Shown: positions 9,535 through 50,666 of the stretch, piece after piece
Numbering within the stretch: the first letter of the stretch is position 1
Layout: each line of letters opens with the position of its first letter
Assembly (NCBI RefSeq): GCF_029892785.1
Contig: NZ_JARXXA010000014.1
Coordinates: 1 to 64,000, forward strand
Origin: Parabacteroides sp. PH5-46
GTDB taxonomy: Bacteria > Bacteroidota > Bacteroidia > Bacteroidales > Tannerellaceae
DNA: 64,000 nt
Reading direction: 5' to 3'
Made by a program: the position numbers and the translations under genes
The notes under the pieces: model-generated
Database searches by the model: none
What the model saw: only the letters and a program-made list of their open reading frames with translations
What the model was told of the DNA's origin: nothing

Positions 9535-9622
9535 TCGTTTCACAACTGTAGAATGTTTTTTCCACAAGTGTGAAGCGAATTTTTCACAGCTGTGAAAAGG
9601 TTATTTTACAGCTGTGAAAAGC
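9535..9622. repeat. Array A: four tandem 22-bp palindromes (araR-araD)
   Basis: Units at 9535, 9557, 9579 and 9601 abut exactly. Their centres carry ACAACTGT, ACAAGTGT, ACAGCTGT and ACAGCTGT (pattern ACANNTGT), flanked by T-runs on the left and A-rich sequence on the right (left half TTTTTCACAGC-like). The two araR-proximal units (9579 and 9601) are the best matched. The array occupies the middle of the 303-bp gap between araR and araD, about 80 bp upstream of the arabinose -7 box. Confidence 0.85.
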
Positions 9623-9651
9623 ACAAATATATAGGTACAAAACAGTCGTTA

Positions 9652-9667
9652 CTGCTTATCTAAGCAG
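9652..9667 (-). terminator. Small stem-loop after araR
   Basis: CTGCTTA-TC-TAAGCAG forms a 7-bp stem 30 nt past the araR stop codon. The sequence that follows on the minus strand (TAACGACTGTTTTG) is only weakly U-rich, so a role as terminator is uncertain. Confidence 0.3.
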
Positions 9668-9696
9668 CAAAAAACAGAGAGGAAAGAAAGTAGGTA

Positions 9697-10389
9697 TTAA
9701 AGTGAAAAATAGAAACCGTCTTCCAGCAATTTATCGTACTTCTCTTTATTAAATGTATAATAGAAGGCGCCTCTTTTGGAGCTTTTCTTGTCTTTTTCGT
9801 CCAGTTTCTCCAGGATATCCATAGAGTTCAGTTTTTTTCTGAAATTCCGCTTATCCAGAGGTGTCTGGTAGATGGCTTCATACAGGTTCTGTAGCTGAGG
9901 CAAGGTGAATTTGTCCGGAAGCAGGTTAAATCCGACCGGACGTGTGGCGGCTTTACGCTTCAGGCGCGCGAGCGTGTCCTTTATCATTAAGGTATGGTCA
10001 AAAATCAGATTGGGTAGATCGCTCACCCTTGTCCATTGGGCATTGTATTCCTTTAAAAGGTCTGTGTTAAAATCGTTCAGATTAACCAGTGCATAGTAGG
10101 CTACGGAGACAACCCGCTCGCCCAGGTCGCGGGTAACATCTCCGTAGGCTCCTACCTGCTCCATAAACAAGTCATGGATGCCTGTACACTCTGTCAACAC
10201 GCGGGATGCTGCGTCGTTTATACTTTCACCGGACCTGACAAATCCTCCCATAAGTGACCATTCACCTTTCATAGGTTCAAATTTACGCTTATAGAGTAAT
10301 ACATTCAGTTCCTTATCATTAAATCCTAAAATGATACAATCGACTGCAACAAAGAATTTGACTTCTTTTTGATAAAAAGCGGCTGACAT
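9697..10389 (-). CDS. araR: NUDIX-type transcriptional regulator AraR
   Basis: A 230-residue NrtR-family regulator: an N-terminal Nudix-fold sensor (about residues 10-140) and a C-terminal winged helix (about 150-225, ending FYYTFNKEKYDKLLEDG). The Nudix box at 49-71 is degenerate: the REUxEE segment reads R63-V-L-T-E-C68, so two catalytic glutamates are replaced by Val and Cys. This fits a ligand sensor with no hydrolase activity. The homologous Bacteroides protein represses arabinose genes until L-arabinose binds. Here it sits directly upstream of the arabinose operon and 26 nt after galK, with which it is probably co-transcribed. Confidence 0.85.
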   Translation of the reverse strand: MSAAFYQKEVKFFVAVDCIILGFNDKELNVLLYKRKFEPMKGEWSLMGGFVRSGESINDAASRVLTECTGIHDLFMEQVGAYGDVTRDLGERVVSVAYYALVNLNDFNTDLLKEYNAQWTRVSDLPNLIFDHTLMIKDTLARLKRKAATRPVGFNLLPDKFTLPQLQNLYEAIYQTPLDKRNFRKKLNSMDILEKLDEKDKKSSKRGAFYYTFNKEKYDKLLEDGFYFSL

Positions 10390-10415
10390 AATATTTCTGA
10401 CTTTATATTTATACT

Positions 10416-11567
10416 TTAATAGAGTTTGCGTGCTCCGTCGCTGATAACTACATTATACAACTTAGGTTCGCGTCCGAATTTTTCTTTATAGGCACGGAAG
10501 GCTTCCTTTACAAAGTCGTCATACAATTCATCCTTTACCAGATTGATCGTACAGCCGCCAAAGCCACCACCCATTACGCGTGATCCGGTTACACCGCATT
10601 TCTTTGCTACATCATTCAGGAAGTCGAGCTCTTCGCAACTTACTTCATATAGCTTGCTCATACCGTGATGTGTGCCGTACATGCGGTCGCCTACGGTCTC
10701 GTAATCGCCTTTTTCCAATGCTGCGCAAACATCCATCACACGCTGTACTTCTTCAATTACATACTCGGCGCGCATGTAATCTTCGGCACTTACGTCTGCT
10801 TTTACTTCATTCAGCATTTCCATGGTAGCGTCACGCAGGAATTCTACTTCCGGATGATTCCGGCGGATAGCAGCCGCAACGGTTTCGCAAGACTGGCGAC
10901 GTTTGTTATAAGCCGACGATGCCAATTCATGCTTCACTACCGTATCAAGCAATACCAGCTTATATCCTTTCGGATTAAACGGATAGTATTTATGTTCCAA
11001 CGAACGGCAATCAAGCAGCATCAAACTTCCTTCTTTCCCGAAGATAGAAGCAAACTGGTCCATAATACCGCAGTTTACGCCTACGTAGTTATGTTCGGTA
11101 GCTTGTCCGATCTTTGCCAGTTCAAACTTGTCAATACCCAGGGAAAACAAGTCATTCAGTGCGAAAGCATAGGTACTTTCCAAAGCTGCCGACGACGACA
11201 TACCGGCTCCCAGAGGAACGTCTCCTGAGAAAGCTGTATCAAAACCGGAGATTTGACCTCCTCTTTTTATGATCTCACGGCATACACCGTATATATATTT
11301 AGCCCAACCTTGAGCAGGCAGGTCATTTTCATTCAATCCGAACTCTGCTGTTTCATTCAAATCCAAAGCAACAGCACGTACCTTACCGGTACCATTTAGT
11401 TTTATTTCAGCTACCATACCTTTGTCGATAGCGCCAGGGAATACGAATCCGCCGTTATAGTCTGTGTGTTCTCCGATTAAGTTGATACGTCCGGGAGAGG
11501 CATATACAGCGCCCGTTTCGCCGTTGAAGTGATTAGTGAAGCCTTTTCTTACTCTTTCTACATCCAT
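10416..11567 (-). CDS. galK: Galactokinase
   Basis: Phosphorylates alpha-D-galactose to galactose 1-phosphate, first step of the Leloir pathway. A 383-residue GHMP kinase with all family motifs: the galactokinase signature GRINLIGEHTDYNGG (26-40), the ATP-binding loop PLGAGMSSSAALE (118-130), and the C-terminal GGGFGGCTINLV. It has its own -7 box just downstream of the terminator of the permease gene, and is followed after 26 nt by araR. Placing the arabinose regulator behind galK suggests that galactose and arabinose, often found together in plant arabinogalactans, are handled jointly. Confidence 0.95.
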   Translation of the reverse strand: MDVERVRKGFTNHFNGETGAVYASPGRINLIGEHTDYNGGFVFPGAIDKGMVAEIKLNGTGKVRAVALDLNETAEFGLNENDLPAQGWAKYIYGVCREIIKRGGQISGFDTAFSGDVPLGAGMSSSAALESTYAFALNDLFSLGIDKFELAKIGQATEHNYVGVNCGIMDQFASIFGKEGSLMLLDCRSLEHKYYPFNPKGYKLVLLDTVVKHELASSAYNKRRQSCETVAAAIRRNHPEVEFLRDATMEMLNEVKADVSAEDYMRAEYVIEEVQRVMDVCAALEKGDYETVGDRMYGTHHGMSKLYEVSCEELDFLNDVAKKCGVTGSRVMGGGFGGCTINLVKDELYDDFVKEAFRAYKEKFGREPKLYNVVISDGARKLY

Positions 11568-11597
11568 GATAATTAGATTTTACATTTGAAACAGAAA

Positions 11598-11605
11598 CAA
11601 AATTA
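11598..11605 (-). promoter_or_regulatory. -7 box of the galK-araR transcript
   Basis: TAATTTTG on the minus strand matches TAnnTTTG. It lies right after the U-tract of the upstream terminator and about 30 nt before the galK ATG. Confidence 0.5.
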
Positions 11606-11613
11606 TAAAAAAA

Positions 11614-11669
11614 ACGAAGACACAGTAGAAATGAACTCATAAAAAGAATTCACTTCTCTGTGTCTTCGT
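11614..11669 (-). terminator. Intrinsic terminator after the sugar permease
   Basis: A long hairpin: arms ACGAAGACACAG (11614-11625) and its complement (11658-11669), extended inward by AGAAxTGAA/TTCAxTTCT. On the minus strand it is followed by a run of eight or nine T. It separates the galM-permease transcript from galK-araR. Confidence 0.85.
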
Positions 11670-11687
11670 GTTTTATCTTATAAAAAA

Positions 11688-12974
11688 TTAATCAACAGGA
11701 ATATCCTTGTTTACATTCTTGCTTCCGATTAAAGCATAATACAGCAGGTAAGCCAAGCCTAAGAAGGGCACCCAATAAGAAGTCAGGTAACCGGCAGCAT
11801 CAGCTACTGCATTCTGAATTAATGGAAGGATACCTCCACCACAAACCATCATCATAAAGATTCCGGAAGCAGCAGCGATATATTTACCCAAACCTTCAAC
11901 AGCCAGATTGAAGATACCTCCCCACATAATAGAAGTACACAATCCGCACAAGATAAGGAACAATACGTTAATTGGAACCTCGGTCATTGCAACAGAAATA
12001 GAAGGAACTGTTTGGATAACAGGAATAGAAACACGTATGGAAGTAGGCAAGAAGATTGCTAAAGTAACCAAGATAATACCAACACCTGACGCAAAGGTAA
12101 GCATCGACTTACTGGAAACTCTAGAAGCAACAGAAGCCCCAACGAAACGACCTACAAGCATCAGCAGCCAGTACATACCGGCAACTACACCAGCAGAAGC
12201 TGCACCATTAGCAACGCCTGTAGCAGGGTCGGCAATGAACAACATCATTGTTCCCGGGATACCTACTTCAATACCCACATATACACCAATAGCGATAGCT
12301 CCCAATACGAAATGACGGAAAGACCAAGCGCTGTATTTAGACTTCTCAAGTGAAGCGTCTGCCTTTGCAGCATGAGGCTCAGGTATAGAAACAAAGTATA
12401 ATACAATACCTACCAAGGCAAAGATACCCATTGCCATAAACATCACCGGGTAAACGTCTGTAATCTGAGCTTTCGTAGCTTCACCTACCAAGGCACCTAC
12501 TAAAATCGGCACTAATGTACCCATCAGCGAGTTAAAAGACCCACCAATCTGGATTAACTGGTTACCTTTGTTTCCACCGCCACCTAATGTATTCAACATA
12601 GGATTAACAACGGTATTCAACATACACATAGAGAAACCGGCAACGAATGCACCTAACAGATAAACGGCAAAACTTCCAGCCGTACCGGAAAGCACCTGGA
12701 TACCAACGCCTACGAATCCAACTACAATAGCTATCAAGGCTGTTTTTTTGTAACCAACTCTCTCAAGCAACTTACCGGCTGGTATACCCATCACGGCATA
12801 AGCAATAAAATTGGCAAAGTTACCCAACATACCCATGAAGTTGGATACGCCGAATTGGTTTTTCAGAACAACACCCATAGGTGCCGCCAGATTAGTAACA
12901 AAGGAAATCATACCGAATAGCAGAATCATCATGATAATCGGCAAAGTGTAATTTTTTTGTTGTGTTGAACTCAT
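11688..12974 (-). CDS. MFS sugar permease (FucP/GluP-like)
   Basis: A 428-residue, 12-helix major facilitator of the fucose/glucose/galactose:proton symporter (FHS) group. The N-terminal half contains FAYAVMGIP-type membrane sequence (FIAYAVMGIPAGKLLERVGY, near residues 50-70), with the GxLxxRxGYK loop typical between helices 2 and 3 of MFS proteins. It lies 31 nt after galM, which points to galactose or glucose as the substrate, and is closed by a strong intrinsic terminator. The exact sugar cannot be read from the sequence. Confidence 0.85.
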   Translation of the reverse strand: MSSTQQKNYTLPIIMMILLFGMISFVTNLAAPMGVVLKNQFGVSNFMGMLGNFANFIAYAVMGIPAGKLLERVGYKKTALIAIVVGFVGVGIQVLSGTAGSFAVYLLGAFVAGFSMCMLNTVVNPMLNTLGGGGNKGNQLIQIGGSFNSLMGTLVPILVGALVGEATKAQITDVYPVMFMAMGIFALVGIVLYFVSIPEPHAAKADASLEKSKYSAWSFRHFVLGAIAIGVYVGIEVGIPGTMMLFIADPATGVANGAASAGVVAGMYWLLMLVGRFVGASVASRVSSKSMLTFASGVGIILVTLAIFLPTSIRVSIPVIQTVPSISVAMTEVPINVLFLILCGLCTSIMWGGIFNLAVEGLGKYIAAASGIFMMMVCGGGILPLIQNAVADAAGYLTSYWVPFLGLAYLLYYALIGSKNVNKDIPVD

Positions 12975-13005
12975 AGCTTAAATTCTTTTTTTAGTTATGT
13001 ATTGT

Positions 13006-14085
13006 TTATTGTATTATTAAGAATTGATATATCGTTTTACTGTCAAAGCTTTCCCCCGGACGAAGAGTCGTTGTCGGGTATTCCGGCTTGTTCGGGCTAT
13101 CGGGGAAGTGATGTGTTTCCAGGCAAAGGGCTGCCCTTGCCGGATATCGTTGTCCGTTCTTGCCTACAAAGTTGCCTGTCATCCAGTTGCCTGTATATAG
13201 CTGTACGCCCGGTTCCGAAGTATATGTTTCCATCACTATTCCGGTTTTGGGTGAAACACAACGGGCGCAGAATGCCATCTCTCCTTCTTTTTTGTTCAGT
13301 ACATACGTATGGTCGTAGCCGTTTCCGAACACCAACTGCTCAAAGTCAGCTTCAATGCGCGAACCAACGGCAAAGGGAGTACGGAAGTCCATAGGCGTAC
13401 CTTCTACCGCTTCCTTCGGTCCGTAAGGAATTGCTGTGTTATCTGTAGGGAGATAGTAATCGGCATTGATGGTAAGCAAATGATCTCCGATTGACGGATC
13501 ACCTGCTCCGGACAGATTGAAGTATGAATGATTGGTCAGGTTTACAACTGTTGGCTTATCAGTTGTAGCATGATAGCCGATCACTACTTCGTTTTTATCA
13601 GACAAATGATAGGTTATTTCAACAGATAAGTTTCCCGGAAAACCTTCCTCACCATCTGCTGAAGTATATGCTAAAGTAACTGTATCTTTATTGATTTCTT
13701 TTATATCCCATACTACGGCATTAAAGCCCTTGATACCGCCGTGTAGATTGTTGGGACCATTATTAATTGCCAACTTATCGTACACCACACCGTCTATCTC
13801 AAAACGACCTTTGGCGATACGGTTTCCGAAACGTCCGCAAACAGCACCAAAGTAAGGCTCTTCCGACACAAGATACTCATCTATTGAGTTATGTCCTGTA
13901 ACAACATCTGTCATTTTTCCATTTTTGTCGGGAACCATCAGTGATACGATTTTTGCCCCATAGTTGGTTACAGTCAATTCTGCTCCAATACTATTGGTCA
14001 GGATGCAGAGTTTTGTTGTTTTGCCATCAATTAGCTTTTCGAAGTGTTCAGGTGTCAATCCGGAAAGCGTTTTTTCGTTCTTCAT
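13006..14085 (-). CDS. galM: Aldose 1-epimerase (mutarotase)
   Basis: Interconverts alpha and beta anomers of galactose, glucose or other aldoses so that galactokinase receives the alpha form. It is 359 residues, normal for GalM. The substrate/catalytic regions are visible: GRFGNRIAKGRFEIDG (about residues 85-100), NGPNNLHGG, the catalytic His region LTNHSYFNLSG (near 180) and the C-terminal acidic stretch. No signal peptide is apparent. It is first in a two-gene transcript with the MFS permease and close to galK, so galactose is the likely physiological substrate. Confidence 0.93.
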   Translation of the reverse strand: MKNEKTLSGLTPEHFEKLIDGKTTKLCILTNSIGAELTVTNYGAKIVSLMVPDKNGKMTDVVTGHNSIDEYLVSEEPYFGAVCGRFGNRIAKGRFEIDGVVYDKLAINNGPNNLHGGIKGFNAVVWDIKEINKDTVTLAYTSADGEEGFPGNLSVEITYHLSDKNEVVIGYHATTDKPTVVNLTNHSYFNLSGAGDPSIGDHLLTINADYYLPTDNTAIPYGPKEAVEGTPMDFRTPFAVGSRIEADFEQLVFGNGYDHTYVLNKKEGEMAFCARCVSPKTGIVMETYTSEPGVQLYTGNWMTGNFVGKNGQRYPARAALCLETHHFPDSPNKPEYPTTTLRPGESFDSKTIYQFLIIQ

Positions 14086-14223
14086 GTATATAATTCGTCT
14101 AATAATGCGTGTAAAAGTACGTGCTTATTCCCACATACGAGTTTGCAAAAAAGATGTTTTAAAACAGGATGTGGCTTTTTCAAGGGAACTTTTAACAGTT
14201 CTGCTTGAAATTGTAAAATTCAT

Positions 14224-14967
14224 TTATTTATGCCAGATATCCCAAGCTGCGAATGCTTGCAGCAAAAGCATTTCCAAGCCGTTTTTCACAATTGCTCCTT
14301 TTTCCTTTCCTTTTTTCATAAAAAGGGTTTCATCCGGATTGTATAACAAATCGTATAACAAGTGATTAGGCGTTAGTAAGTCATAAGGAATGTCCGGGCA
14401 GTCGTCTATATTCGGAAACATACCTACCGGAGTTGTATTTACAATAACGGTATATTGCTCCATTGTTTTAGGGTTTATCTCGGCATACGTAATACAAAAC
14501 TCTTTGGGTGTGCGAGATACTAATGTAGAAGCAATACCCAACTGCTTTAATCCGTGGAAGACTGCTTTGGAAGCTCCGCCTGTTCCCAGAATCAAGGCTT
14601 TTCGATGTGATTCGTTCAACAAAGGGTCAATCGACTTCTTAAAACCGATAATATCCGAATTGTAACCCTTCAGTTTCAGCTTTCCGAAATGTCCTTTTCC
14701 GAATTTAATGACATTAACCGCTCCTATCAAACGGGCATCCTCATCCAGTTCGTCCAGGAGGGGGATTACCTGTGTTTTATAAGGTAAGGTCACGTTTAAT
14801 CCACACAGATCGGGATTGTCTTTCAATACTTTTCTTAACTCCTTAATGTCTGCAATTTCAAAGTTAACATATTCGGCGTTTATGTTTTCCGCAGCAAACT
14901 TTTGGTTGAAAAACGTTTTTGAAAATGAATGGCCCAGCGGATACCCTATTAATCCATACTTTCTCAT
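14224..14967 (-). CDS. aroE: Shikimate dehydrogenase
   Basis: Reduces 3-dehydroshikimate to shikimate with NADPH in aromatic amino acid synthesis. It is 247 residues, slightly shorter than E. coli AroE, as in other Bacteroidales. The N-terminal substrate motif GYPLGHSFSK, the catalytic-Lys loop NVTLPYKTQVI (about 60-70), the glycine-rich nucleotide loop LGTGGASKAVF and the NTTPVGMFP motif are all present. It follows menG by 11 nt at the end of the phoH-purC-menG-aroE run. The 138-bp gap after it, before galM, shows only A/T-rich DNA with a weak TACTTTTA promoter-like box for galM. Confidence 0.94.
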   Translation of the reverse strand: MRKYGLIGYPLGHSFSKTFFNQKFAAENINAEYVNFEIADIKELRKVLKDNPDLCGLNVTLPYKTQVIPLLDELDEDARLIGAVNVIKFGKGHFGKLKLKGYNSDIIGFKKSIDPLLNESHRKALILGTGGASKAVFHGLKQLGIASTLVSRTPKEFCITYAEINPKTMEQYTVIVNTTPVGMFPNIDDCPDIPYDLLTPNHLLYDLLYNPDETLFMKKGKEKGAIVKNGLEMLLLQAFAAWDIWHK

Positions 14968-14978
14968 ATTAAAACTAT

Positions 14979-15719
14979 TTATCCTTTTTTACCTGTATAT
15001 AGCGAACAAATACCGAATGTAAAAGTCCGTACTTTTACATCTATGAAACCCTGCCTTCTGAGTATTCCTACCATTTCCTCTCCCTGAGGAACTACTTTAA
15101 TGGAGGCTGGCAAGTAATCATAAGCGGCTTTTTCTTTTGAAAACCAACGTCCCACATTCGGTATCACTATTTTTGAATAGATTTTGTAGAGTTGTTTCAT
15201 GGGAAACTTTTCCGGCGACGACAGTTCCAGTATCATGACATGCCCGTTGGGCTTCAATACCCGGTACATCTCAGATATGCCCTTGTCTATATCCTCAAAG
15301 TTACGTATCCCAAAGGCGGCTGTAACAGCGTCAAATCGATTGTTTTCATACGAAAGCGACAGACAGTCCTGCTGCTCATACGATATGTGTCCGGAGTATC
15401 CGGCAACTTCTACCTTTTGGCGCCCTATCTCCATCATGCCTTCGGATATATCGATACCAATAACCTGGCTAGGTTTTAATGTTTCATACAAAGAAATAGC
15501 CAGGTCACCAGTTCCGGTAGCCACATCCAGAATGGTCTCAGGAGAGAAGGGCTTCAGAAAAGCAATCCCTTTCCGTCGCCACCCCTTGTCAAAACCCAAT
15601 GAAAGCGTATGGTTCAGCAGATCATATTTACCTGCAATAGCATCAAACATACGTTCTACCTGAGTAGCTTTCTGTTCGCTATCATTATAAGGCAATATAT
15701 TCTCCGAACCGTACTTCAC
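14979..15719 (-). CDS. ubiE: Demethylmenaquinone methyltransferase
   Basis: SAM-dependent C-methyltransferase that makes menaquinone from demethylmenaquinone (MenG/UbiE). It is 246 residues. UbiE signature sequences are present: [20 protein letters not shown] (about residues 20-40), the SAM-binding motif [14 protein letters not shown] (near 66), and [19 protein letters not shown]. Bacteroidales use menaquinone in anaerobic respiration, so the demethylmenaquinone role is the natural one. The gene is 7 nt after purC and 11 nt before aroE, indicating one transcript. Confidence 0.95.
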
Positions 15720-15726
15720 TTGACTT

Positions 15727-16683
15727 TTATTTATTGTTTGTTTTCAGATAATCAGAAACATTCTTCTCTATCCGTGAGAGCAACTGAGCTGTATCGCCCT
15801 TTACGAATGCTTCACCCGTTATATGCTCAAAAAGCTCAATGTAGCGTTCGCTGATACTTTGTACAATAGCCGGAGTCATCTCCGGAACGGTTTGGCCTGC
15901 TTTGCCCTGAAAACCGTTCTCCATCAACCACTCACGCACAAACTCTTTGGAAAGTTGCTTCTGAGGTTCACCTTTCTCAAAGCGTTCCTGATAGCCTTCC
16001 GTGTAGAAGTAACGGGAGGAGTCTGGAGTATGTATCTCATCTATCAGGTAGATCTTGCCGTCACGATGTCCAAATTCATACTTGGTGTCTACCAGGATCA
16101 GTCCGCGCTGAGCCGCTATCTCCGTCCCTCTCTTGAATAAAGCCAGGGTGTATTTCTCCAACAAAGCATAGTCGGCTTCCGACACAAGCCCCTGCTTCAG
16201 TATTTCTTCCTTAGAAATATCCTCATCATGCAAGCCTTGCTCAGCTTTTGTTGTAGGAGTGATGATGGGCTCCGGGAAACGTTCGTTTTCACGCATACCG
16301 TCGGGAATCTTCACACCACATATCTCACGAATGCCACTTTTATAAGCTCTCCAGGCGCTCCCGCACAGGTATCCACGTACAATCATTTCTACTGGAAAAC
16401 CTTGACACTGAACACCTACAGTCACCATCGGATCAGGCGATGCCAACTTCCAATTCGGGCAAATATCTGTTGTAGCATCCAGGAACTTCGCTGCAATCTG
16501 GTTCAGCATCTGTCCTTTATAAGGAATACCTTCCGGTAATACCACATCAAATGCCGAAATACGGTCTGTTGCCACCATCACTAACAGTTCGTCATTGATG
16601 TTATACACATCACGCACTTTCCCATGATATACACTTTTCTGTCCCGGGAAATTGAAATCTGTTCTCACTAAAGCTTTATTCAT
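15727..16683 (-). CDS. purC: Phosphoribosylaminoimidazole-succinocarboxamide synthase
   Basis: Joins CAIR and aspartate with ATP to give SAICAR in purine synthesis. It is 318 residues, the longer SAICAR synthetase form seen in Bacteroidetes and yeast rather than the 237-residue E. coli form. Conserved stretches include [12 protein letters not shown] (N-terminal nucleotide-binding loop), [21 protein letters not shown], and [29 protein letters not shown], which carries catalytic acidic residues. It lies 47 nt after phoH, behind a hairpin, and 7 nt before menG. Confidence 0.95.
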
Positions 16684-16699
16684 AACTCTTTTATTTTAT

Positions 16700-17812: not shown

Positions 17813-17900
17813 TCGCGTGACATATGTCACGCGATCAAACTACATATGTGAAACGATCGAAACACAAATGTGAATCGATCGCGTGACAATTGTCACGCGA
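17813..17900. repeat. Array B: four tandem 22-bp palindromes (phoH upstream)
   Basis: Units at 17813, 17835, 17857 and 17879 abut exactly. Their centres are ACATATGT, ACATATGT, ACAAATGT and ACAATTGT. Units 1 and 4 are perfect 22-bp palindromes with left halves TCGCGTGACAT and TCGCGTGACAA. Units 2 and 3 share a second, weaker theme (TCAAACTACAT and TCGAAACACAA). The array begins 2 bp past the stop codon of the glucanase gene, so unit 4 could also form a hairpin at the end of that transcript. Confidence 0.88.
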
Positions 17901-17902
17901 TT

Positions 17903-29306: not shown

Positions 29307-29394
29307 TAATCCCACATATGTAGAACTCATGTTCAACAGTTGTTGAATTCATGTTCTACAATTGTTGAACATAAGTTCTACAACTGTGGGACTT
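29307..29394. repeat. Array C: four tandem 22-bp palindromes (divergent region)
   Basis: Units at 29307, 29329, 29351 and 29373 abut exactly. Their centres are ACATATGT, ACAGTTGT, ACAATTGT and ACAACTGT. Left halves follow ATGTTCTACAA (units 3 and 4 best; unit 1 most diverged). The array lies between divergent genes, 51 bp from one -7 box and 78 bp from the other. Confidence 0.86.
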
Positions 29395-37336: not shown

Positions 37337-37424
37337 CAAAACACACGTATGCAATTAAAAAAACACATGCATGTGTTTTCGGAAAAGCACGCATGCGTTT
37401 TGTCAATCGCATGTGTGCGATTTT
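37337..37424. repeat. Array D: four tandem 22-bp palindromes (wza-cvfB)
   Basis: Units at 37337, 37359, 37381 and 37403 abut exactly. Their centres are CACGTATG, CATGCATG, CACGCATG and CATGTGTG (pattern CAYGYRTG), flanked by A-runs on the left and T-runs on the right in units 2-4. Unit 2 is the most symmetric. The array sits almost in the middle of the gap between divergent genes, 114 and 116 bp from their two -7 boxes. Apart from it, the promoters and one stem-loop, the gap shows nothing else. Confidence 0.83.
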
Positions 37425-43070: not shown

Positions 43071-43192
43071 GAAAAATAAAGAATATAAAAAATAAATGAC
43101 TCAAATAGACGCTGCGTTAAAATCTGTCAAAGAAATAAAACTTCCAACTATTATGACTTTATTTGTGCTTTATACATTATCAATATCCCATT

Positions 43193-44305
43193 ATGAAGAG
43201 AAGACTTTTTGCCTTATTATTGTTATTTCCATTTCTCGTCAGTTGTATCCAGGATGAACCATTATCACCTTATGCAGATATAGAAACATTCTCCTTGCCA
43301 AATGATGTTACTCTCAGCGATGCAACGTTCAATCAGACAAACATCTCTATTCATGTGAAGAAAAGCGCCAACTTAACGGCTCTTATACCAACTGTTACTA
43401 TTTCAGAAGGTGCAACTATTACACCTGATCCATCAATAGCCCAGGACTTCAACAAAGAAGTAAAATATGTTGTAACAGCAGCTGATGGCAAGCACCAGAG
43501 AGAGTACACAATACAAACTATAACCACATCGGCTTACAGTTATAGTTTTGAAAACTGGGAAAAACTAGACCCTAATGCAATCTATGAAACTCCGGTAGAA
43601 TATGATAGTGAGGGAAAACGAACCACCCTCTGGGACTCAAGCAACAAAGGTATCAACATCTACAAACAGAATGAATATAAAAGGCCGGAAGAGTTTCCTA
43701 TTCACAAAACAAGCAATATGGTAACTCATGGAAAATATTCAGCGGAAATGTTAACGATGGTGGGGCCCGGAGATATTTTAGGGATGATTAATATTCCTAT
43801 TGTTGCCGGCTCTCTGTTTATGGGAGTGATGGATCCGCTTTATGCATTAAAAGATCCTCTGTTATCCACTCGCTTCGGATTACCGTTCTATGACAAACCT
43901 CTCCGTATGACCGGTAAATACATGTATAGAGCCGGAACAGAAAATTATATTGATCCGAATGGTAAAGTTTTACCTAATGTAAAAGACTCATGCGCCATAT
44001 ATGGCGTGTTCTTCCGGGTGGATAATGCTTCCATGATGCTGGACGGCACAAACATACGGATACATCCCAACATTGTTGCCATGGGTATGATGTCACCGGA
44101 AGAACGTGCAGGAAGTAAAGGAGAAGGAATGGTTCCGTTTGATATTACTTTCGAGTACAAAAAAGACCATATCGTTGACTTCGAGAGATACCAATACAAA
44201 CTCGCCCTTATCTTCAGTTCCAGTTTCTATGGAGACCGTTACGAAGGAACCCCCGGTAGTCACCTGATTATAGATGAGGTAGCAGTTATTATTGACGAAG
44301 AATAA
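43193..44305 (+). CDS. PCMD-domain lipoprotein
   Basis: A 370-residue lipoprotein (lipobox FLVSC, Cys about 18) with a putative carbohydrate metabolism domain (PCMD, PF13201) in its C-terminal two thirds, marked by YSYSFENWEKLDP, the central beta-sandwich and the C-terminal HLIIDEVAVIID. The N-terminal 90 residues form a beta-rich region with ATITPDPSIAQDFNKEVKYVVTAADG, a fold often found before PCMD. Start chosen at 43193, where the signal peptide begins. A beta-barrel protein follows 14 nt later. The function of the pair is not known. Confidence 0.75.
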   Translation: MKRRLFALLLLFPFLVSCIQDEPLSPYADIETFSLPNDVTLSDATFNQTNISIHVKKSANLTALIPTVTISEGATITPDPSIAQDFNKEVKYVVTAADGKHQREYTIQTITTSAYSYSFENWEKLDPNAIYETPVEYDSEGKRTTLWDSSNKGINIYKQNEYKRPEEFPIHKTSNMVTHGKYSAEMLTMVGPGDILGMINIPIVAGSLFMGVMDPLYALKDPLLSTRFGLPFYDKPLRMTGKYMYRAGTENYIDPNGKVLPNVKDSCAIYGVFFRVDNASMMLDGTNIRIHPNIVAMGMMSPEERAGSKGEGMVPFDITFEYKKDHIVDFERYQYKLALIFSSSFYGDRYEGTPGSHLIIDEVAVIIDEE

Positions 44306-44319
44306 GAACAAGAACAAGT

Positions 44320-45081
44320 ATGAAAACACACTATATCAAAGCAGTAATCGCTCTTTTAGCAGTTATCTTCTTTTGCGAAACAAGTTGGTCGCAGGATTAC
44401 AGTTCCCGCAAATGGGAGTATAAGTTTTTTGCCGGTTATAACTTAGGAGGAAGTACCCCTCTGCCATTACCGGCTGAAATACGAAAAATAAACTCCTGGA
44501 GTCCGGGTTTTACCGGTTCGCTGGCCTTTCACGCAACTCGCTGGCTGACTCCGGAATGGGGAATAACCTCCGGACTGGCTATCGACCTGAAAGGAATGAT
44601 AATCAAAGCCGATGTTAAATACATGATGACCAATCTGGTAGTGGGTGAAGGTGACAATACCGGTACGTTTAGTGGAATGTTCACCGGAGAAAACAAAACA
44701 AAAGTAAGGAACGGCTATCTCGTTCTCCCCCTTTTAGCTACATGGCGTCCTGTGGATAAGTGGACGTTCCGCTTAGGTGGGTATTTTGCCTCTCAACAAG
44801 ATGCTAAATTTGAAGGTTCAGCTTCCAATGGCTACATACGTACCGGAGGACCTGCCGGAGATCGGATCAATATCGAAACAGCCACCTTTGACTTTTCCGA
44901 AAATATACGAAGCGTTGATGCCGGCTTAATGGCCTCAACTGACTGGTTTTTTACCGACAAAATGGCTATTACCGGACAATTATCATGGGGGCTTGTACCA
45001 CTCTTCCCGTCTAATTTCAACGGTATCCCTTACAAGATGTACAATGTGTACTTCCTGACAGGGATTGCATACCGGCTATAG
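44320..45081 (+). CDS. Outer membrane beta-barrel protein, PorT-like
   Basis: A 253-residue protein with a Sec signal peptide (cleavage near TSWSQ) followed by alternating aromatic beta strands: WEYKFFAGYNLGGSTPLP, FTGSLAFHATRWLTPEWG, TSGLAIDLKGM, and the C-terminal YKMYNVYFLTGIAYRL. This is the layout of small outer-membrane barrels (PF13568). It forms a bicistronic unit with the PCMD lipoprotein, with 14 nt between them. A surface pair with a receptor or adhesive role is conceivable but unproven. Confidence 0.75.
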   Translation: MKTHYIKAVIALLAVIFFCETSWSQDYSSRKWEYKFFAGYNLGGSTPLPLPAEIRKINSWSPGFTGSLAFHATRWLTPEWGITSGLAIDLKGMIIKADVKYMMTNLVVGEGDNTGTFSGMFTGENKTKVRNGYLVLPLLATWRPVDKWTFRLGGYFASQQDAKFEGSASNGYIRTGGPAGDRINIETATFDFSENIRSVDAGLMASTDWFFTDKMAITGQLSWGLVPLFPSNFNGIPYKMYNVYFLTGIAYRL

Positions 45082-45094
45082 TCTCTCTTTATAA

Positions 45095-46615
45095 TTACTG
45101 GTGCTCCGGCCTTAATAAGTCGTTTACTGTTTTTACTGGATTGAAGGTTTCTATGGGAACTTCCACAAAGACAGTATTCCAATTACTCATGGCTCCGTTC
45201 CATAAACCGGGTAATTCCAAAGCCTTCAGTTCTTTTCCGTCTTTACTTTTGATGGATATGAAACCGGTATTTTTGTCTACGAAATCCGGTAGGTCAAACT
45301 TATTCCCCTTATAATCCTTAATGGCGCAAACCAAGTCTACAGGGTTGAAGTGAGTTCCTTTTTCAAATAATTCCCTTTTTTCGGGCTCGTTCAGGTTTAT
45401 TTGTGAACTTTCCAGTATTTGCAGAGAAATAGTGCCGTCTGCATTCACCGCCAGGAAAGGGCCTCCTCCCGGCTCGCCTACATTCTTCACCATACCGCAC
45501 ACACGTAATGGACGGTTCAGTTTTTCCTTCAGGTAAAGAACCAGTTCGGCATCTTCCAGGTATTTAATTTCTGTATTTCGGGTACAGAGTTCGTTCTGCA
45601 GGAAATGAATCATTTCTTCTATCTGCTTGTGGGTGTATTTTCCTCCGTCAATCAGCTTCAAATAGTCTGTTATTTTCTTTTGATACGACACAAGTATTCC
45701 TGCCAGTATCTTCTTATAAATCACGGTTGAATACTTAAAACTGTCGGGTACAACGTTGTCTACATTTTTAATGAATACCACATTGGCATCCAGGTCATTC
45801 AGGTTCTGAATCAAGGCGCCATGTCCTCCGGGACGGAACAGCAATTTATCCTCTTTGTCACGGAACAGTTCATTGTTCATGTCAACCGCTACCGTATTGG
45901 TAGAAGGTTTTTGCCGACTGAAAGAAATCTGGTATTCTACAGAGAATTTATCCTCATAAAAATGCTTCTTTTCGGCTACTTGCTGTTCAAACAAATGCAA
46001 ATGTTCAGGAGAAACCGTAAAGTGCAGATTCACCTCTCCCAATGTGTTTTTAGCATACATCGCTCCTTCGGCCAAGTGCTCTTCCATGGCAGTCCGTACG
46101 CATTGGGGATAGGTATGGAAAAGCAATAAACCCTTCGGCAACTGCCCATAATTCAGTCCCGGCTCATTCAGCAAAGCCGATACGATTGCTTTATATTCGC
46201 CGGCTGCCATCATTTCCGGCATATCTTTTTCGTAGTGAACCCGGCAGAATACATTCAGTTTATCAAAGAAGGCAAACTTCTCTATTTCTTGAAAAAATGT
46301 TTGCTCAAACTCGGTAGTCGGTACATCATAAGGAGCTTCCAGAAAGGCATAAAGATCCTTGAACATACGGCTGGCAGCACCTGAAGCAGGAACAAACTTC
46401 ACGATTTTCTTTCCGCTTCCCAAATACTCTTCCCAAGCGTTGATATACGTGATTTGCGTCTCTTGCGGGATAGTCATAATACCTTTTTCCACGGAAGCAG
46501 AAGCCGTTATTTCCAAAAAAGGAAAACCTTGCCTGAATGCCATAAGCTGTTCTTCTATCTGCGCTTCGGCAATACCTTTCGCTTTGATCTGATCTAAGTC
46601 TCTTGCATTTAACAT
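45095..46615 (-). CDS. DUF4301-domain protein
   Basis: A 506-residue cytoplasmic protein of the DUF4301 family, found mainly in Bacteroidetes. I see no signal peptide or membrane segment. Notable stretches are KIVKFVPASGAASRMFKDLYAFLE near the N-terminus, FRPGGHGALIQNLNDLDANVVFIKNVDNVVPD in the middle (a sugar-nucleotidyltransferase-like look, with a glycine-rich loop followed by a D-rich segment), and GMVKNVGEPGGGPF. A nucleotidyltransferase-type fold is my guess only. The gene is single, convergent with the beta-barrel gene and divergent from relA, with a TACATTTG -7 box upstream. Confidence 0.8.
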   Translation of the reverse strand: MLNARDLDQIKAKGIAEAQIEEQLMAFRQGFPFLEITASASVEKGIMTIPQETQITYINAWEEYLGSGKKIVKFVPASGAASRMFKDLYAFLEAPYDVPTTEFEQTFFQEIEKFAFFDKLNVFCRVHYEKDMPEMMAAGEYKAIVSALLNEPGLNYGQLPKGLLLFHTYPQCVRTAMEEHLAEGAMYAKNTLGEVNLHFTVSPEHLHLFEQQVAEKKHFYEDKFSVEYQISFSRQKPSTNTVAVDMNNELFRDKEDKLLFRPGGHGALIQNLNDLDANVVFIKNVDNVVPDSFKYSTVIYKKILAGILVSYQKKITDYLKLIDGGKYTHKQIEEMIHFLQNELCTRNTEIKYLEDAELVLYLKEKLNRPLRVCGMVKNVGEPGGGPFLAVNADGTISLQILESSQINLNEPEKRELFEKGTHFNPVDLVCAIKDYKGNKFDLPDFVDKNTGFISIKSKDGKELKALELPGLWNGAMSNWNTVFVEVPIETFNPVKTVNDLLRPEHQ

Positions 46616-46679
46616 AGTATGGAGCTTTTTGTTATTATCATATTCGCCTTATCCTTTTTCACAATTCGTATGTTTATGG

Positions 46680-46687
46680 CAAATGTA
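46680..46687 (-). promoter_or_regulatory. -7 box of the DUF4301 gene
   Basis: TACATTTG on the minus strand fits TAnnTTTG, giving a leader of about 58 nt. Confidence 0.45.
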
Positions 46688-46793
46688 TAAAAATAGAGCC
46701 GAATCCTGAACATATTAAAATAAAAAAAGGTACTTTTACAACATCTTCAAGAGATAGTCGTAATAAGAAGTAGGTTATTAAGTTTAGAGTGTT

Positions 46794-49022
46794 ATGACTG
46801 AATTATCATTTTTTACACCTGAAGAGAAAGTTTTATTTCGCTCAAGATATAAAGAGTTATTAGGTTGTCTTTATCAGTTCCTTGAAAAAGAGGATATTCA
46901 CAAGATGCGTGAACTGATGCAACAGGTAGTTGTCCAGGATTGTTACGGAAGAGACAAAAACGGTATCAACGGACTGCTGCGTAATATTGAAACGGCATTG
47001 ATTGCTGCTTCGGAAATTGGTTTGCGCAGAGCGCCGGTTATCGCCCTCCTCCTCTATCGCCCTGTGTTTAAAAAGATCGTAAAACTGGAAGAGGTTGAAA
47101 AGCAATTCGACAAGGATGTAGCCCTGATTATCTCAAGACTGCTCAAAACATCAGATCTGTATGCCCGCAACACAGCCGTCAATTCGGAGAACTTCCATCG
47201 TCTCTTATTCTCATTTGCCGAAGACGTACGGGTTATTCTATTAATGATAGCCGACAGACTTTACATGATGCGTATCGGCAAGCAGCTCACTAGTGACAAT
47301 GATCGCATACGCCTGGCTACGGAGGTGTCTTACCTATATGCTCCATTGGCGCATCGTCTGGGCTTTTATAAGATCAAAGGCGAACTGGAAGATTTGTCAT
47401 TAAAATACCTCGATCCGAAACAGTTTGCCTTTATCAAGAAAAAGCTGAATGAAACCAAGCGTTCCCGTGATGCTTATATTGCCGAATTTATCGCTCCGGT
47501 TCAAAAGAAGCTGGAAGAGGTCGGTTTCAACTTTGACATTAAAGGAAGAACTAAATCGATACATTCCATCAACAATAAGCTGAAGAAGCAAAAGATTGAC
47601 TTTGAAGATGTATACGACTTGTTTGCTATCCGCATCATACTGGATATGCCCAACGCCACAAAGGAAAAGGAACGGGCAGACTGCTGGCAGGTCTACTCCA
47701 TCGTAACCGCCATGTACCAGCCCAATCCCAAGCGGATGAAAGACTGGATATCCATCCCCAAGAACAATGGTTATGAGAGTCTACATGCCACCGTATTGGG
47801 CCCGCAAAACCGATGGGTGGAAGTGCAGATACGTACCCGGCGGATGGATGAAATTGCCGAGAGCGGACTGGCTGCCCACTGGAAGTACAAAGGGGTAAAG
47901 GAAGAGATGGGACTGGACGAGTTTCTGACGAATGTCCGGATGGCATTGGAATCAACAGACCTAGACCCGATGGATCTGATGAAGAACTTTAAAATGGATC
48001 TTTACAAGGACGAGATCTATGTCTTCACACCCAAAGGGGAATTACTGAAGCTACCGGTTGGGGCTACGGTGCTCGACTTTGCCTTTGCCATTCATACCGA
48101 TCTGGGTAGCAAATGTGTATCCGGAAAGGTGAACGACAAAAATGTGCCGATCCGTCAGGTACTCCATAATGGAGATACGGTATCGGTAGTTACCTCTCCT
48201 GCCCAATCACCCAAGAGAGACTGGCTTTCGTTTGCCGCCACGTCTAAAGCCCGCATAAAGATCAAACAAGCCTTGCGCGAAGAAGCTGCCAAGAGTGCCG
48301 ACTTCGCCAAAGAAATGTTGCAGCGCCGCTTCAAAAATCGCAAGATAGAGATGGATGAAGGGGTATTCCTGCGTTACATCAAAAAGAAAGGCTACAAAAC
48401 AGTTACCGATTTCTACCTTGACCTTGCCGAAGAGCATCTGGATCCCAATTCGGTTATTGAAGAATACCTGGACACCGAACAAAAGGAAAAAGAGCTAACG
48501 GTGCATCACACGGAAATACGTAGCGCCGAAGAGTTTGTTACGACCACCGAAATGGAGGAAATATCCCGCAAACAGGATGTGCTGGTAATCGATAAAGACC
48601 TGACCGGGATAGAATACAAACTGGCTAAGTGCTGCAACCCCATCTTCGGGGATGAGATTTTCGGTTTTGTGTCCACAAACGGTATCAAGATACATCGTAA
48701 AAGTTGCCCGAATGAACAGCAAATGCGTGAACGTTTCGGATATCGGATGATTGATGCCCGCTGGAGCGGCAAAGAAGGTGCAGGCGACATTGTCAACCTC
48801 CGCATAATAGGCCGGGATGACATCACAATCGTAACAAACATCACGTCTGTAATTAGTAAAGAGGCAGGTGTAACACTCCGCTCGCTGAATATCGATACCG
48901 TAGATGCCTTCTTCAGAGGACACTTCTCTGTCCTCGTAAAAAGCACCAACGCCCTGGCTCAGCTGGTAGGAAAAATCAAAGCCGTAAAAGGAGTTAAAAC
49001 AGTAGAACGGTTGAATCAATGA
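46794..49022 (+). CDS. relA: RelA-type (p)ppGpp synthetase with degenerate hydrolase domain
   Basis: A 742-residue long RSH protein of the stringent response. The N-terminal HD domain is degenerate: the HD pair normally in a LLHD motif reads LLLYRP, and the ADRLHNMRT motif reads ADRLYMMRI, so ppGpp hydrolysis is unlikely. The synthetase domain is intact (IKGRTKSIHSINNKL, VYDLFAIRIIL, NGYESLHATVLGP, EVQIRTRRMDEIAESGLAAHWKYK; about residues 250-370). TGS (about 402-465) and ACT (about 665-742) domains follow. Bacteroidetes usually also carry a bifunctional Rel/SpoT elsewhere. Its stop codon abuts the stop codon of the convergent cca gene. Confidence 0.9.
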   Translation: MTELSFFTPEEKVLFRSRYKELLGCLYQFLEKEDIHKMRELMQQVVVQDCYGRDKNGINGLLRNIETALIAASEIGLRRAPVIALLLYRPVFKKIVKLEEVEKQFDKDVALIISRLLKTSDLYARNTAVNSENFHRLLFSFAEDVRVILLMIADRLYMMRIGKQLTSDNDRIRLATEVSYLYAPLAHRLGFYKIKGELEDLSLKYLDPKQFAFIKKKLNETKRSRDAYIAEFIAPVQKKLEEVGFNFDIKGRTKSIHSINNKLKKQKIDFEDVYDLFAIRIILDMPNATKEKERADCWQVYSIVTAMYQPNPKRMKDWISIPKNNGYESLHATVLGPQNRWVEVQIRTRRMDEIAESGLAAHWKYKGVKEEMGLDEFLTNVRMALESTDLDPMDLMKNFKMDLYKDEIYVFTPKGELLKLPVGATVLDFAFAIHTDLGSKCVSGKVNDKNVPIRQVLHNGDTVSVVTSPAQSPKRDWLSFAATSKARIKIKQALREEAAKSADFAKEMLQRRFKNRKIEMDEGVFLRYIKKKGYKTVTDFYLDLAEEHLDPNSVIEEYLDTEQKEKELTVHHTEIRSAEEFVTTTEMEEISRKQDVLVIDKDLTGIEYKLAKCCNPIFGDEIFGFVSTNGIKIHRKSCPNEQQMRERFGYRMIDARWSGKEGAGDIVNLRIIGRDDITIVTNITSVISKEAGVTLRSLNIDTVDAFFRGHFSVLVKSTNALAQLVGKIKAVKGVKTVERLNQ

Positions 49023-50456
49023 TTAATCGTTAATCAGCCCCATTTCTTTTGCGCGTTGCATCATAAAGGCTTTGGCTGCTTCATATTCGTTGGGGATTTT
49101 GCCATCCAGAATCGCATTCTTTATGGCCTCTTTAAGGGCACCTACCGGAGGGGAAGGAGGCAATCCGAACGTTTGCATGATCTCCTCTCCCGAGACAGGC
49201 GGCTGAAAGTTACGCACCCGGTCTTTCTCTTCAATAAAAGCCAGTTTGTCCCGCACCAGGCGGAAGTTATTCAGGAAGCGTCGTACCTTATCGGGGTTCT
49301 TGCTTGTTATATCGGCCTCGCATAGTAGCATCAGGTCGTCAATGTCATCTCCGGCATCAAACAACAAGCGGCGGACAGCCGAATCGGTCACATCTTCGTC
49401 CACCAGGTTGATGGGCCGCATATGCAGATTTACCATCTTCTGCACATACTTCATTTTCTCATTCATAGGGAGCTTCATCCGCCGGAAAATACCCGGAAGC
49501 ATCTTCTCTCCTACGTAGTTGTGATTGTGGAAAGTCCACCCCAGGCGATTATCCCAGCGCTTGGTAGCCGGCTTGCCTATATCGTGCAACAGCGCACTCC
49601 AGCGCAGCCACAGATTGTCGGTATGCCTGCTCAGGCGGTCAAGCACCATCAGCGTATGGGTCAGATTATCCTTATGGCCGATACCTTCCTTTGTCTCCGC
49701 TCCTTTCAAAGCACTCAACTCCGGAAAAATGATCGCCAAGAGTCCCGACTTGTCCAATAACTCAAATCCGATGGAGGGTTTAGGAGAAAGGATTATTTTA
49801 TTCAGCTCGTCGGCTACGCGTTCTTTCGATATAATATGTATGCGTTCTTTATTACGCTCTATGGCATCAAAGGTATCCGGATCGATAAAGAAGCCCAGTT
49901 GGCTGGCAAAGCGAATGGCTCGCATCATCCTCAGCGGATCATCGCTGAAGGTAATATCCGGGTCAAGCGGTGTACGGATCGTTAGGTTTTCCATATCCTG
50001 AAGCCCATCAAACGGATCTACCAATTCTCCAAAGCGGTCTTTATTGAGACAGAAAGCCAAGGCATTAATGGTGAAATCGCGCCGGTTTTGGTCATCTTCA
50101 AGCGTACCATCTTCCACGATAGGTTTGCGGCTATCTGCCCGGTATGATTCCCGGCGGGCGCCTACAAATTCTATTTCCAGGTCGGCATTCTTAACCTGCG
50201 CCGTTCCGAAATTCTTGAAAACAGATACGGAGGTTGATCTACCCAACTTCTTGGCTACAGCCTTAGCCAATTCGATCCCGCTACCTACTGCCACAATATC
50301 TATATCCTTCGACTCACGCCCTAAATAGATATCCCGTACATAACCGCCGATAACATACGCATCGAGCTTCAACTCTTCTGCTGCTTCCGATATAGCCTGA
50401 AAGGGTTTTGATGAAATATGTTTTAGTATTTCCTTTTTGTCCAGATCAATATACAT
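49023..50456 (-). CDS. cca: CCA tRNA nucleotidyltransferase / poly(A) polymerase family with HD domain
   Basis: A 477-residue enzyme adding CCA to tRNA 3' ends. Nucleotidyltransferase motifs: [25 protein letters not shown] (residues around 35-55, GGxVRD and DxD) and [11 protein letters not shown]. The RNA-binding helices follow, and an HD phosphohydrolase domain starts around 290 ([13 protein letters not shown]). I start at the ATG at 50456. A TTG at 50474 would be only about 10 nt from the -7 box at 50485-50492. The gene abuts relA tail to tail. Confidence 0.92.
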
Positions 50457-50484
50457 TGACTTCTTACTTATCAATTCACAGGCA

Positions 50485-50492
50485 CAAAGTTA
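50485..50492 (-). promoter_or_regulatory. -7 box of cca
   Basis: TAACTTTG on the minus strand fits TAnnTTTG, giving a leader of about 22 nt to the ATG at 50456. Array E begins 87 bp upstream. Confidence 0.5.
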
Positions 50493-50578
50493 GTTTTTTC
50501 TGCTGTAAAAGAAAGAAAGTGTACAAATAAATAGGATTTAGGTAGCATGCAACTGCCATCTTTCTGCCAATGTTTTTG

Positions 50579-50666
50579 TTGGCCGATAGCCATCAACCAA
50601 TTGGCTGATAATTGTCAGTCAGTTGGCCGACGGCCGTCAGCCAATTAACCGATAATTATCGGCCAA
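50579..50666. repeat. Array E: four tandem 22-bp palindromes (cca upstream)
   Basis: Units at 50579, 50601, 50623 and 50645 abut exactly. Their centres are ATAGCCAT, ATAATTGT, ACGGCCGT and ATAATTAT (pattern AYNNNNRT), inside arms of the type TTGGCCGA and its complement. Left halves are TTGGCCGATAG, TTGGCTGATAA, TTGGCCGACGG and TTAACCGATAA. The neighbouring 22-bp segments on either side are not palindromic, so the count is four. It lies between the AraC gene (3' end) and cca. Confidence 0.88.

What the first reader, a model, noticed from the sequence alone, without database searches (positions are those of the whole stretch)
9535..50666. Five arrays of exactly four 22-bp palindromes, one architecture with different sequences
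Five intergenic regions each contain four abutting 22-bp imperfect palindromes in strict 22-bp register (88 bp). They are at 9535, 17813, 29307, 37337 and 50579. Unit number and length are constant, but each array has its own consensus. Arrays A, B and C centre on ACANNTGT, D on CAYGYRTG and E on AYNNNNRT. Within an array every unit can pair with every other one as RNA or single-stranded DNA. About 22 bp is close to two helical turns, so protein dimers would sit on one face. A repeat that keeps geometry but not sequence suggests that something counts or copies units locally. I know no named element with this description. Porphyromonas BrickBuilt elements are the nearest I recall, but those are conserved in sequence.
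Basis: partly seen in the sequence, partly recalled or inferred. Interest (0 to 1): 0.9.

Follow-up and report, generated by a model that had tools for sequence, protein, structure and literature searches.

The report
Palindrome arrays paired with HU-like proteins
A gut-type bacterium carries many short DNA arrays made of four (sometimes five) 22-base palindromes, in several sequence families, and one array of each of nine kinds sits in front of a gene for a different HU-like DNA-binding protein, which suggests a set of private protein-to-DNA address codes.

Summary
All five arrays lie at the stated coordinates. In the window plus 400 kb of the same genome, strong tandem palindromes peak at period 22 (10 hits; controls at that period: none).

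Each array belongs to its own dispersed family. Unit number is nearly fixed within a family: four in A-F, five in G and mostly in J.

'Local counting or copying' is not supported: half-sites within one element are no more alike than those of different elements. Paired bases do not covary. Instead some 11-bp half-site positions are invariant, as in protein binding sites.

The decisive result is the partner. Of 18 HU-HIG (PF18291) matches in the genome, nine have an array upstream, each of a different kind: A, B, C, D, D-like, E, E-like, F, G. Other Tannerellaceae repeat this with other sequences: 6 of 11 winged-helix-type genes against 10 of 797 control windows.

Best reading: each HU-HIG dimer binds its own 22-bp palindrome, four or five side by side. 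Binding, function and mode of dispersal are inferred.

The parts
9535..9622 (.). Array A: 4 x 22 bp, half-site consensus about actTTTCACAG; between an aldolase-II gene and an AraR-like NUDIX regulator gene (both on -)
   Evidence: Family copy L012 (with an indel) lies 51 bp upstream of HU-HIG gene L401.
17813..17900 (.). Array B: 4 x 22 bp, half-site TC.....ACAt, flanks AAAGAA..TTCTAT (family TTCTTT); between phoH and a glycoamylase-like gene
   Evidence: Family copy L005 lies 57 bp upstream of HU-HIG gene L406.
29307..29394 (.). Array C: 4 x 22 bp, half-site ..GTTCwACA., outer half-sites TCCCACA; between divergent genes (Y_Y_Y-domain regulator and a glycosyltransferase)
   Evidence: Family copy L047 lies 15 bp to 26 bp (shifted register) upstream of HU-HIG gene L408.
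37337..37424 (.). Array D: 4 x 22 bp, half-site about .AAAwcGCAtG; between divergent genes (polysaccharide export and CvfB-like S1 protein)
   Evidence: Family copy L059 lies about 420 bp upstream of short HU-HIG gene L400.
50579..50666 (.). Array E: 4 x 22 bp, half-site about TTGGCyGAyrG; between a CCA-adding-enzyme-like gene and an AraC-type regulator gene
   Evidence: Family copy L108 lies 58 bp upstream of HU-HIG gene L405.

Best explanation
The arrays are multi-site binding arrays for HU-HIG proteins, HU-like proteins that often carry a C-terminal winged helix. Each HU-HIG paralog recognises its own 22-bp palindrome: one dimer per palindrome, one subunit per 11-bp half-site, four or five dimers side by side on one face of the DNA. 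One array of each kind sits in front of the gene of its own HU-HIG protein, probably for autoregulation. The other copies are scattered between genes as whole elements of nearly fixed unit number, where they would mark sites for a local nucleoprotein structure that shapes the nucleoid or tunes nearby promoters. Shown: array families, unit number, half-site constraint, absence of positive covariation, upstream pairing of nine array kinds with nine HU-HIG genes here and repeated in other genomes. Inferred: physical binding, autoregulation, effect on chromosome or transcription. Unknown: how new copies are made.
For: (1) All 18 PF18291 matches of the genome were scanned (L398-L415). Nine genes have an array on their 5' side, each of a different kind: B at L406, C at L408, D at L400, D-like at L402, E at L405, E-like at L410, F at L409, G at L399 by the scan, and A at L401 by its family match (copy L012; the scan misses it because of an indel). 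(2) Strand-aware test on 32 HU-HIG loci (6 of 38 at contig ends set aside): array score at least 0.7 within 300 bp upstream in 13, within 330 bp downstream in 0. Control ORFs of 200 aa or more: 23 of 273 in this array-rich genome, 10 of 797 in relatives. Winged-helix type, told by length and aligned C-terminus and grouped after the fact: 5 of 7 own (P 1.3e-4), 6 of 11 in other genomes (P 9e-9). (3) In the 15 loci scoring at least 0.66 the array ends 4-60 bp before the start codon in 12. (4) Among 105 proteins flanking A, B, C and E copies HU-HIG was the commonest Pfam family, 5 members, before I had any HU idea. (5) Close paralogs have related arrays: E and E-like proteins 52% identical, L400 and L402 78%, F and L433 of G025 60% with GAGGTACCTC-like cores. 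(6) Invariant half-site positions (B positions 1, 2, 8, 10 in 64 of 64; C positions 4, 6, 8 in 184 of 184) beside free ones, without pairwise compensation. (7) A human faecal contig with a relative 25% identical to L408 has four 22-bp palindromes ahead of the gene by eye; its automatic score is only 0.51, below the control median.
Against: No binding data. Protein identity against half-site similarity is significant over 16 pairs (5 of 5000 permutations) but not within the 14 winged-helix pairs (612 of 5000), so fine co-evolution of specificity is not shown. The winged helix itself is only weakly matched in Pfam, below cut-offs. No array within 300 bp at L398, L419, L420, at L434 (start doubtful) and at the short or otherwise different genes L403, L404, L407, L441, L442, L428, L436, L443, L437; L429 is a mis-picked ORF counted as negative. 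A (L401), D (L400) and D-like (L402) also count as negatives in that automatic test, the last two because they lie 375-430 bp away. L432 passes with only two convincing units. Families H and J and other families of G025 have no partner identified, though only 30 of the 69 HU-HIG matches in eight other genomes were fetched. Pfam shows no dominant shared function among the flanking genes looked at.
Confidence: 0.72

Rival explanations
1. REPIN-like mobile palindromes moved by a Y1 (HUH) transposase of the RAYT or IS200 kind.
For: Dispersed, intergenic, palindromic, many copies, fixed-length elements. A Y1 gene or fragment lies near an array in L138 (D match), L392, L391 and L397.
Against: Only 3 Y1 genes in the genome for at least nine array kinds; the scan finds no array within 1.5 kb of two of them. 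The Y1 genes in L391 and L392 are flanked on both sides by other palindromes (by eye). None of six families shows the GT[AG]G foot (the foot is taken from passages of PMC6006769).
Confidence: 0.06
2. A selfish pair: HU-HIG genes and arrays form a self-spreading system in which the protein helps copy or insert its array elsewhere.
For: Nearly fixed unit number and descent of whole elements. Families differ between species, although J is shared by several. Arrays also ride inside other repeats in related genomes. One 'home' copy per kind sits at the cognate gene.
Against: No catalytic domain in the HU-HIG proteins scanned (nine). No clear target-site duplication.
Confidence: 0.12
3. RNA-level elements: terminators, attenuators or structured transcripts.
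For: Palindromes can fold. B has A-run/T-run flanks like a bidirectional terminator. D often lies just behind a stop codon.
Against: No significant positive covariation in any of five families. GT and AC mismatches are about equal in A, C, D and E, so neither strand is favoured as RNA (B: 12 GT, 29 AC). C lies between divergent genes in 15 of 21 cases. Rfam finds nothing in the window at gathering thresholds.
Confidence: 0.04
4. The HU-HIG link is indirect: both simply accumulate in the same mobile or repeat-rich regions.
For: The genome is rich in arrays (23 of 273 control upstream windows score).
Against: Strict 5' position (13 upstream, 0 downstream of 32), a different array kind at each of nine genes, and enrichment also in array-poorer relatives (6 of 11 against 10 of 797).
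Confidence: 0.06

Closest known systems
REP / REPIN elements with RAYT (TnpA-REP) genes (PMC3116915: outline and abstract; PMC6006769: passages)
   Same: Dispersed intergenic palindromes in several families per genome, each family tied to one gene.
   Different: Tandem 22-bp palindromes of nearly fixed number, no GT[AG]G foot, partner is an HU-HIG DNA-binding protein and not a Y1 transposase.
BrickBuilt of Porphyromonas gingivalis (PMC4596501: abstract, sections 5 and 8, first part of section 7, passages)
   Same: Abutting short units of similar length, intergenic, dispersed in a genome of the same order.
   Different: BrickBuilt units are 23 nt and, by my reading of the printed consensus AGAYCATARTATCCTCTCRTRTG, not dyad-symmetric; 1 to 22.8 copies, with leader, tail and IS5-like ends.
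HU / IHF nucleoid proteins; P. gingivalis HU PG0121 and its 77-bp inverted repeat (PMC3969353: abstract and section headings)
   Same: An HU-type protein tied to a locus with a large inverted repeat.
   Different: By abstract and headings, PG0121 is close to E. coli HU with non-discriminatory binding; here many diverged HU-HIG paralogs each have their own array kind and dispersed copies.
Dedicated chromosomal site systems such as ParB-parS or MatP-matS (recalled, no call)
   Same: A DNA-organising protein with its own scattered palindromic sites.
   Different: As recalled, those have one code per chromosome and single sites; here at least nine codes coexist and sites come in blocks of four or five.

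Membership tests
REP/REPIN-RAYT | GT[AG]G tetranucleotide at the hairpin foot | tested here: not met
   Half-site frequencies of six families (A-F)
REP/REPIN-RAYT | Cognate Y1 transposase gene flanked by the repeat | tested here: not met
   Y1 genes fewer than array kinds; the two flanks read are made of other palindromes
BrickBuilt | 23-nt unit in variable number with leader, tail and GAGACC-type ends | tested here: not met
   against PMC4596501
MITE | Terminal inverted repeats | tested here: inconclusive
   Short conserved inverted flanks in A and B, weak in C-E
MITE | Target-site duplication | tested here: inconclusive
   No clear duplication over 2-11 bp in five families; no empty sites examined
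HU-HIG (PF18291 / TIGR01201), for the partner proteins | Score above the family cut-off | tested here: met
   Nine proteins scanned: nine of nine above the Pfam cut-off; seven of nine above NCBIfam's 68.6 (L406 66.9 and L399 67.8 fall below)
Sequence-specific protein binding site array | Position-specific constraint at each half-site without pair compensation | tested here: met
Sequence-specific protein binding site array | Physical binding by the named protein | not testable with these tools
   Needs gel shift, DAP-seq or ChIP-seq

The most novel reading that the evidence does not exclude
Tannerellaceae carry a set of mutually private DNA 'zip codes': each HU-HIG paralog, an HU body usually with its own winged helix, reads one 22-bp palindrome kind presented in blocks of four or five, and these codes diversify and turn over between species while geometry and block size stay fixed. 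The genome is thereby divided into several overlapping sets of addressable architectural sites, each autoregulated at its home array.
Probability: 0.5. Interest if true: 0.95.

Novelty: categorically new. Interest (0 to 1): 0.9.

Why it matters
HU proteins are, from general knowledge, the textbook case of DNA binding without much sequence choice. HU paralogs each tied to their own dispersed array of nearly fixed size would be a new layer of bacterial chromosome organisation or regulation, and would offer a partner and a role for the many HU-HIG genes of these bacteria (16 to 20 PF18291 matches in each of three genomes, some of them perhaps ordinary HU). It is directly testable: nine gene-array pairs are listed here. 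In the library searched I found no description (paper searches; only listings seen for most hits). A paper on HU-HIG that I recall (Burroughs and colleagues, 2017) is not held and was not read; PMC5771137, on P. gingivalis repeats, was seen only in listings.

Tried and rejected
RAYT/IS200 link: pursued because Y1 genes lie near arrays in a few genomes; dropped after reading the flanks. RNA structure: Rfam none in the window; no positive covariation. Local unit copying: rejected. Target duplications: none clear. Phage or plasmid carriage: two viral-contig patterns (for C and F) found nothing, plasmids none for E, one phage-collection contig for C (its array is a clean four-unit one); viral-contig searches with two HU-HIG proteins found no relative. 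Co-evolution within winged-helix proteins: not significant. Do arrays evolve faster than flanks? The one orthologous pair with an array that I followed (L369/L389) has an identity step at the array and could not answer. Locus E in relatives: none of the 29 other fetched loci shows a four-unit 22-bp array; L227 and L237 have 23- and 21-bp arrays; the two flanking genes are often on different contigs. L140 has a different 22-bp array at the place of B upstream of phoH; one case, not tested further. No HU-HIG gene in the window or in L140-L219 (tblastn with nine HU-HIG proteins, E 1e-6). Structure prediction was not run: the tool admits window proteins and loci of three named tools, and the HU-HIG loci come from the genome search, so I did not send them. 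No PDB relative by sequence for L408, no PADLOC match for five proteins.

Rows set aside: one search left out A rows L012, L023, L024, L025, D rows L059, L071, L077, L082 and E rows L114-L116; one search left out L023-L025 and L082; one search left out L012, L023-L025, L071, L077, L082 and L114-L116; one search took 105 flanking proteins (families A, B, C, E; those of D left out; each cut at 300 aa); one search tested 32 of 38 HU-HIG loci (6 at contig ends) and left out 10 weak or partial matches (L411-L415, L423, L431, L438, L444, L445). Its control ORFs were all open frames of 200 aa or more, overlaps and spurious frames not removed. Only loci that the tools returned were aligned: 8 of 13 B places, 23 C arrays of 30 places, 25 D arrays of 35-40 places.
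Full report
WHAT IS THERE. One search confirms four abutting 22-bp palindromes at each of the five places. A scan of 464 kb of the genome (window plus 20 stretches) for four tandem palindromes gives, at 68% pairing and periods 14-32, 10 hits at period 22, one at 17 and none elsewhere; Markov sequence gives one, at 15. At 60% there are 15 at period 22 and 23 at other periods between 16 and 30, so the peak is sharp only for strong arrays. The rate of 15 in 464 kb would extrapolate to about 140 in the 4.42-Mb genome (extrapolation, not a count). Related loci are poorer: 3 period-22 hits at 64% in 1.25 Mb of 80 phoH loci, against 12 in 464 kb here. Three further kinds turned up here: F (TTTAGACGT/ACCTCTAAA), G (CTGGTTCACAG) and H (AATTCTCATGC).

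FAMILIES, NOT SINGLETONS. BLAST of each array against the genome finds its own dispersed family, the window copy included: 13 places for B, 6 for A, 30 for C, 35-40 for D, mostly at 69-84% identity, 14 for E. Of 77 copies examined, 68 overlap no predicted ORF. C copies lie between divergent genes in 15 of 21 classified cases against 34 of 98 background gaps; D copies are mostly in tandem contexts, 15 of 23.

NUMBER OF UNITS. Counting with half-site matrices gives four in B 8 of 8, C 23 of 23, E with E-like 16 of 16, D 21 of 25, A 6 of 8 (C cross-hits not separated), F 3 of 4, and five in three G arrays. In family J, strong in four related species (G016, G015, G012, G007) and weak in two more, 19 of 29 arrays have five units; the others have 2, 3, 4, 7 or 8. 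G025, which I take to be Parabacteroides sp. PF5-6 from a shared contig length, has 22-bp and 21-bp families of four or five units by the scan. Some genomes of the same genus have longer 21-23-bp arrays.

WHAT IS CONSERVED. The repeated thing is an 11-bp half-site in alternating orientation. Within a family some half-site positions are invariant and others free: in B positions 1, 2, 8 and 10 in all 64 half-sites, in C positions 4, 6 and 8 in all 184. Pairing columns show no significant positive covariation in any of five families, in the local, half-shifted or long-hairpin reading; several values are below independence, which may partly come from uncertain orientation of copies. So each half-site is constrained by itself, as expected of protein binding rather than RNA or cruciform structure. 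Half-sites of one element are not more alike than half-sites of different elements at different positions, while homologous positions are: elements were copied whole and later diverged.

THE PARTNER. Comparing the proteins that flank array copies gave, among other small groups, one cluster with one member beside each of A, B, C, D, E and an E-like array, which I first took for sigma factors. Pfam showed HU-HIG as the commonest family, 5 of 105 proteins, an HU domain fused to a winged helix, Ig or glycine-rich part (NCBIfam TIGR01201 'HU family DNA-binding protein'). The genome has 18 PF18291 matches, 13 of them strong; all 18 were scanned. Nine have an array on their 5' side, each of a different kind: B (L406), C (L408), D (L400), D-like (L402), E (L405), E-like (L410), F (L409), G (L399) by the scans, and A (L401) by its family match, the scan missing it because of an indel. 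The array ends 15-99 bp before the start codon in seven; D and D-like lie 375-430 bp away. D-like resembles D and E-like resembles E, as do their proteins.

REPLICATION IN OTHER GENOMES. PF18291 was then searched in eight other genomes (30 of the 69 matches fetched). Winged-helix-type genes there also have 22-bp arrays upstream, with sequences of their own: L417 and L426 (G027), L424 (G025), L425 (G015), L427 (G016); L432 (G027) with two convincing units; weaker L416 and L439; also the short-type L433 (G025). Formal test: score at least 0.7 within 300 bp upstream in 13 of 32 genes, within 330 bp downstream in 0 of 32; control upstream windows 23 of 273 in the own genome and 10 of 797 in relatives. 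For the winged-helix type (told by length and C-terminal alignment, after the fact) 5 of 7 own and 6 of 11 others (Fisher P 1.3e-4 and 9e-9). Negative: L398, L419, L420, L434 and most short HU-HIG genes. A human faecal contig carrying a 25%-identical relative has four 22-bp palindromes ahead of that gene by eye (L446; automatic score 0.51, below the control median of 0.61), and another faecal contig has a clean four-unit array (L448).

DOES SPECIFICITY FOLLOW THE PROTEIN? Close relatives have related arrays: E and E-like (proteins 52% identical), L400 and L402 (78%), F and L433 across genera (60%). The permutation test gives r = 0.357 over 16 pairs (5 of 5000), r = 0.58 over seven own pairs (62 of 5000), but only r = 0.125 for 14 winged-helix pairs (612 of 5000). 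Many half-sites share an ACA core, which may hide a signal, or there may be none at that depth.

MECHANISM. Best reading: an HU-HIG dimer covers one 22-bp palindrome, four or five dimers line up on one face of the helix, the home array autoregulates the gene, and the dispersed arrays are sites of local chromosome architecture or promoter tuning. The first part rests on the pairing and the half-site constraint; binding, autoregulation and effect are inference. How copies disperse is open: no clear target duplication, no array-specific transposase found. In related genomes arrays also ride inside larger repeats: a 230-450-bp element with TTTTCAGTCAC ends that exists with and without an array, and a repeat of about 570-600 bp.

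WHAT IT IS NOT. BrickBuilt and REPIN-RAYT fail defining tests; MITE is undecided; the terminator reading has evidence against it. I file it as a new kind of system that works like a dedicated site-and-protein pair repeated many times over. A prior description of the pairing would demote it; I found none in the searches listed, and the specialist paper that I recall on HU-HIG could not be read.

Noticed in passing
L391 (about 1140-1380 and 1940-2050) and L392 (1321-2070): Y1 transposase genes with a Y---Q--HH motif (as in the 'subclass 1.2' of PMC6006769, listed there without repeats) are flanked on both sides by short palindromes such as CATAGGGC..GCCCTATG and AGGGTTGAAACCCT that look like their own REP-type repeats.
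   Followed up: partly
L343-L353, L286, L292, L309, L312, L291: A 230-450-bp dispersed element in three related genomes (G007, G012, G015) with long inverted ends (TTTTCAGTCACAT...ATGTGACTGAAAA) built of GTGACTGGAG-like short repeats; it exists with and without a J array in its centre.
   Followed up: partly
L356, L360, L361, L363, L372, L373, L378, L379, L381, L383, L384, L385, L388: A dispersed repeat of about 570-600 bp at about 80% identity in G007 and G015, no obvious coding seen, carrying a short J-type array inside.
   Followed up: partly
L369 against L389: Two related species are about 99% identical for 2 kb up to a J array and 55-88% identical per 100 bp beyond it, as if a recombination junction lay at the array.
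   Followed up: no
L227, L237, L261, L264, L266, L267: Longer minisatellites of 21-23-bp palindromic units in same-genus genomes.
   Followed up: no
L111 about 1500-1550: A single 22-bp palindrome between E-type flanks (GCAGAAAATTG..CAATTTCCTGC), perhaps a collapsed E array.
   Followed up: no
E family copies: Mismatches within E units are almost all of transition type (132 of 143), unlike the other families.
   Followed up: no
L448 (MT836920.1) and L446 (MT837929.1): Four-unit 22-bp arrays in two human faecal contigs labelled phage (L446 by eye only), the latter upstream of a distant HU-HIG relative.
   Followed up: partly
L140 9774: The closest relative has a different 22-bp array (family J) in the same position upstream of phoH as array B here.
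   Followed up: partly
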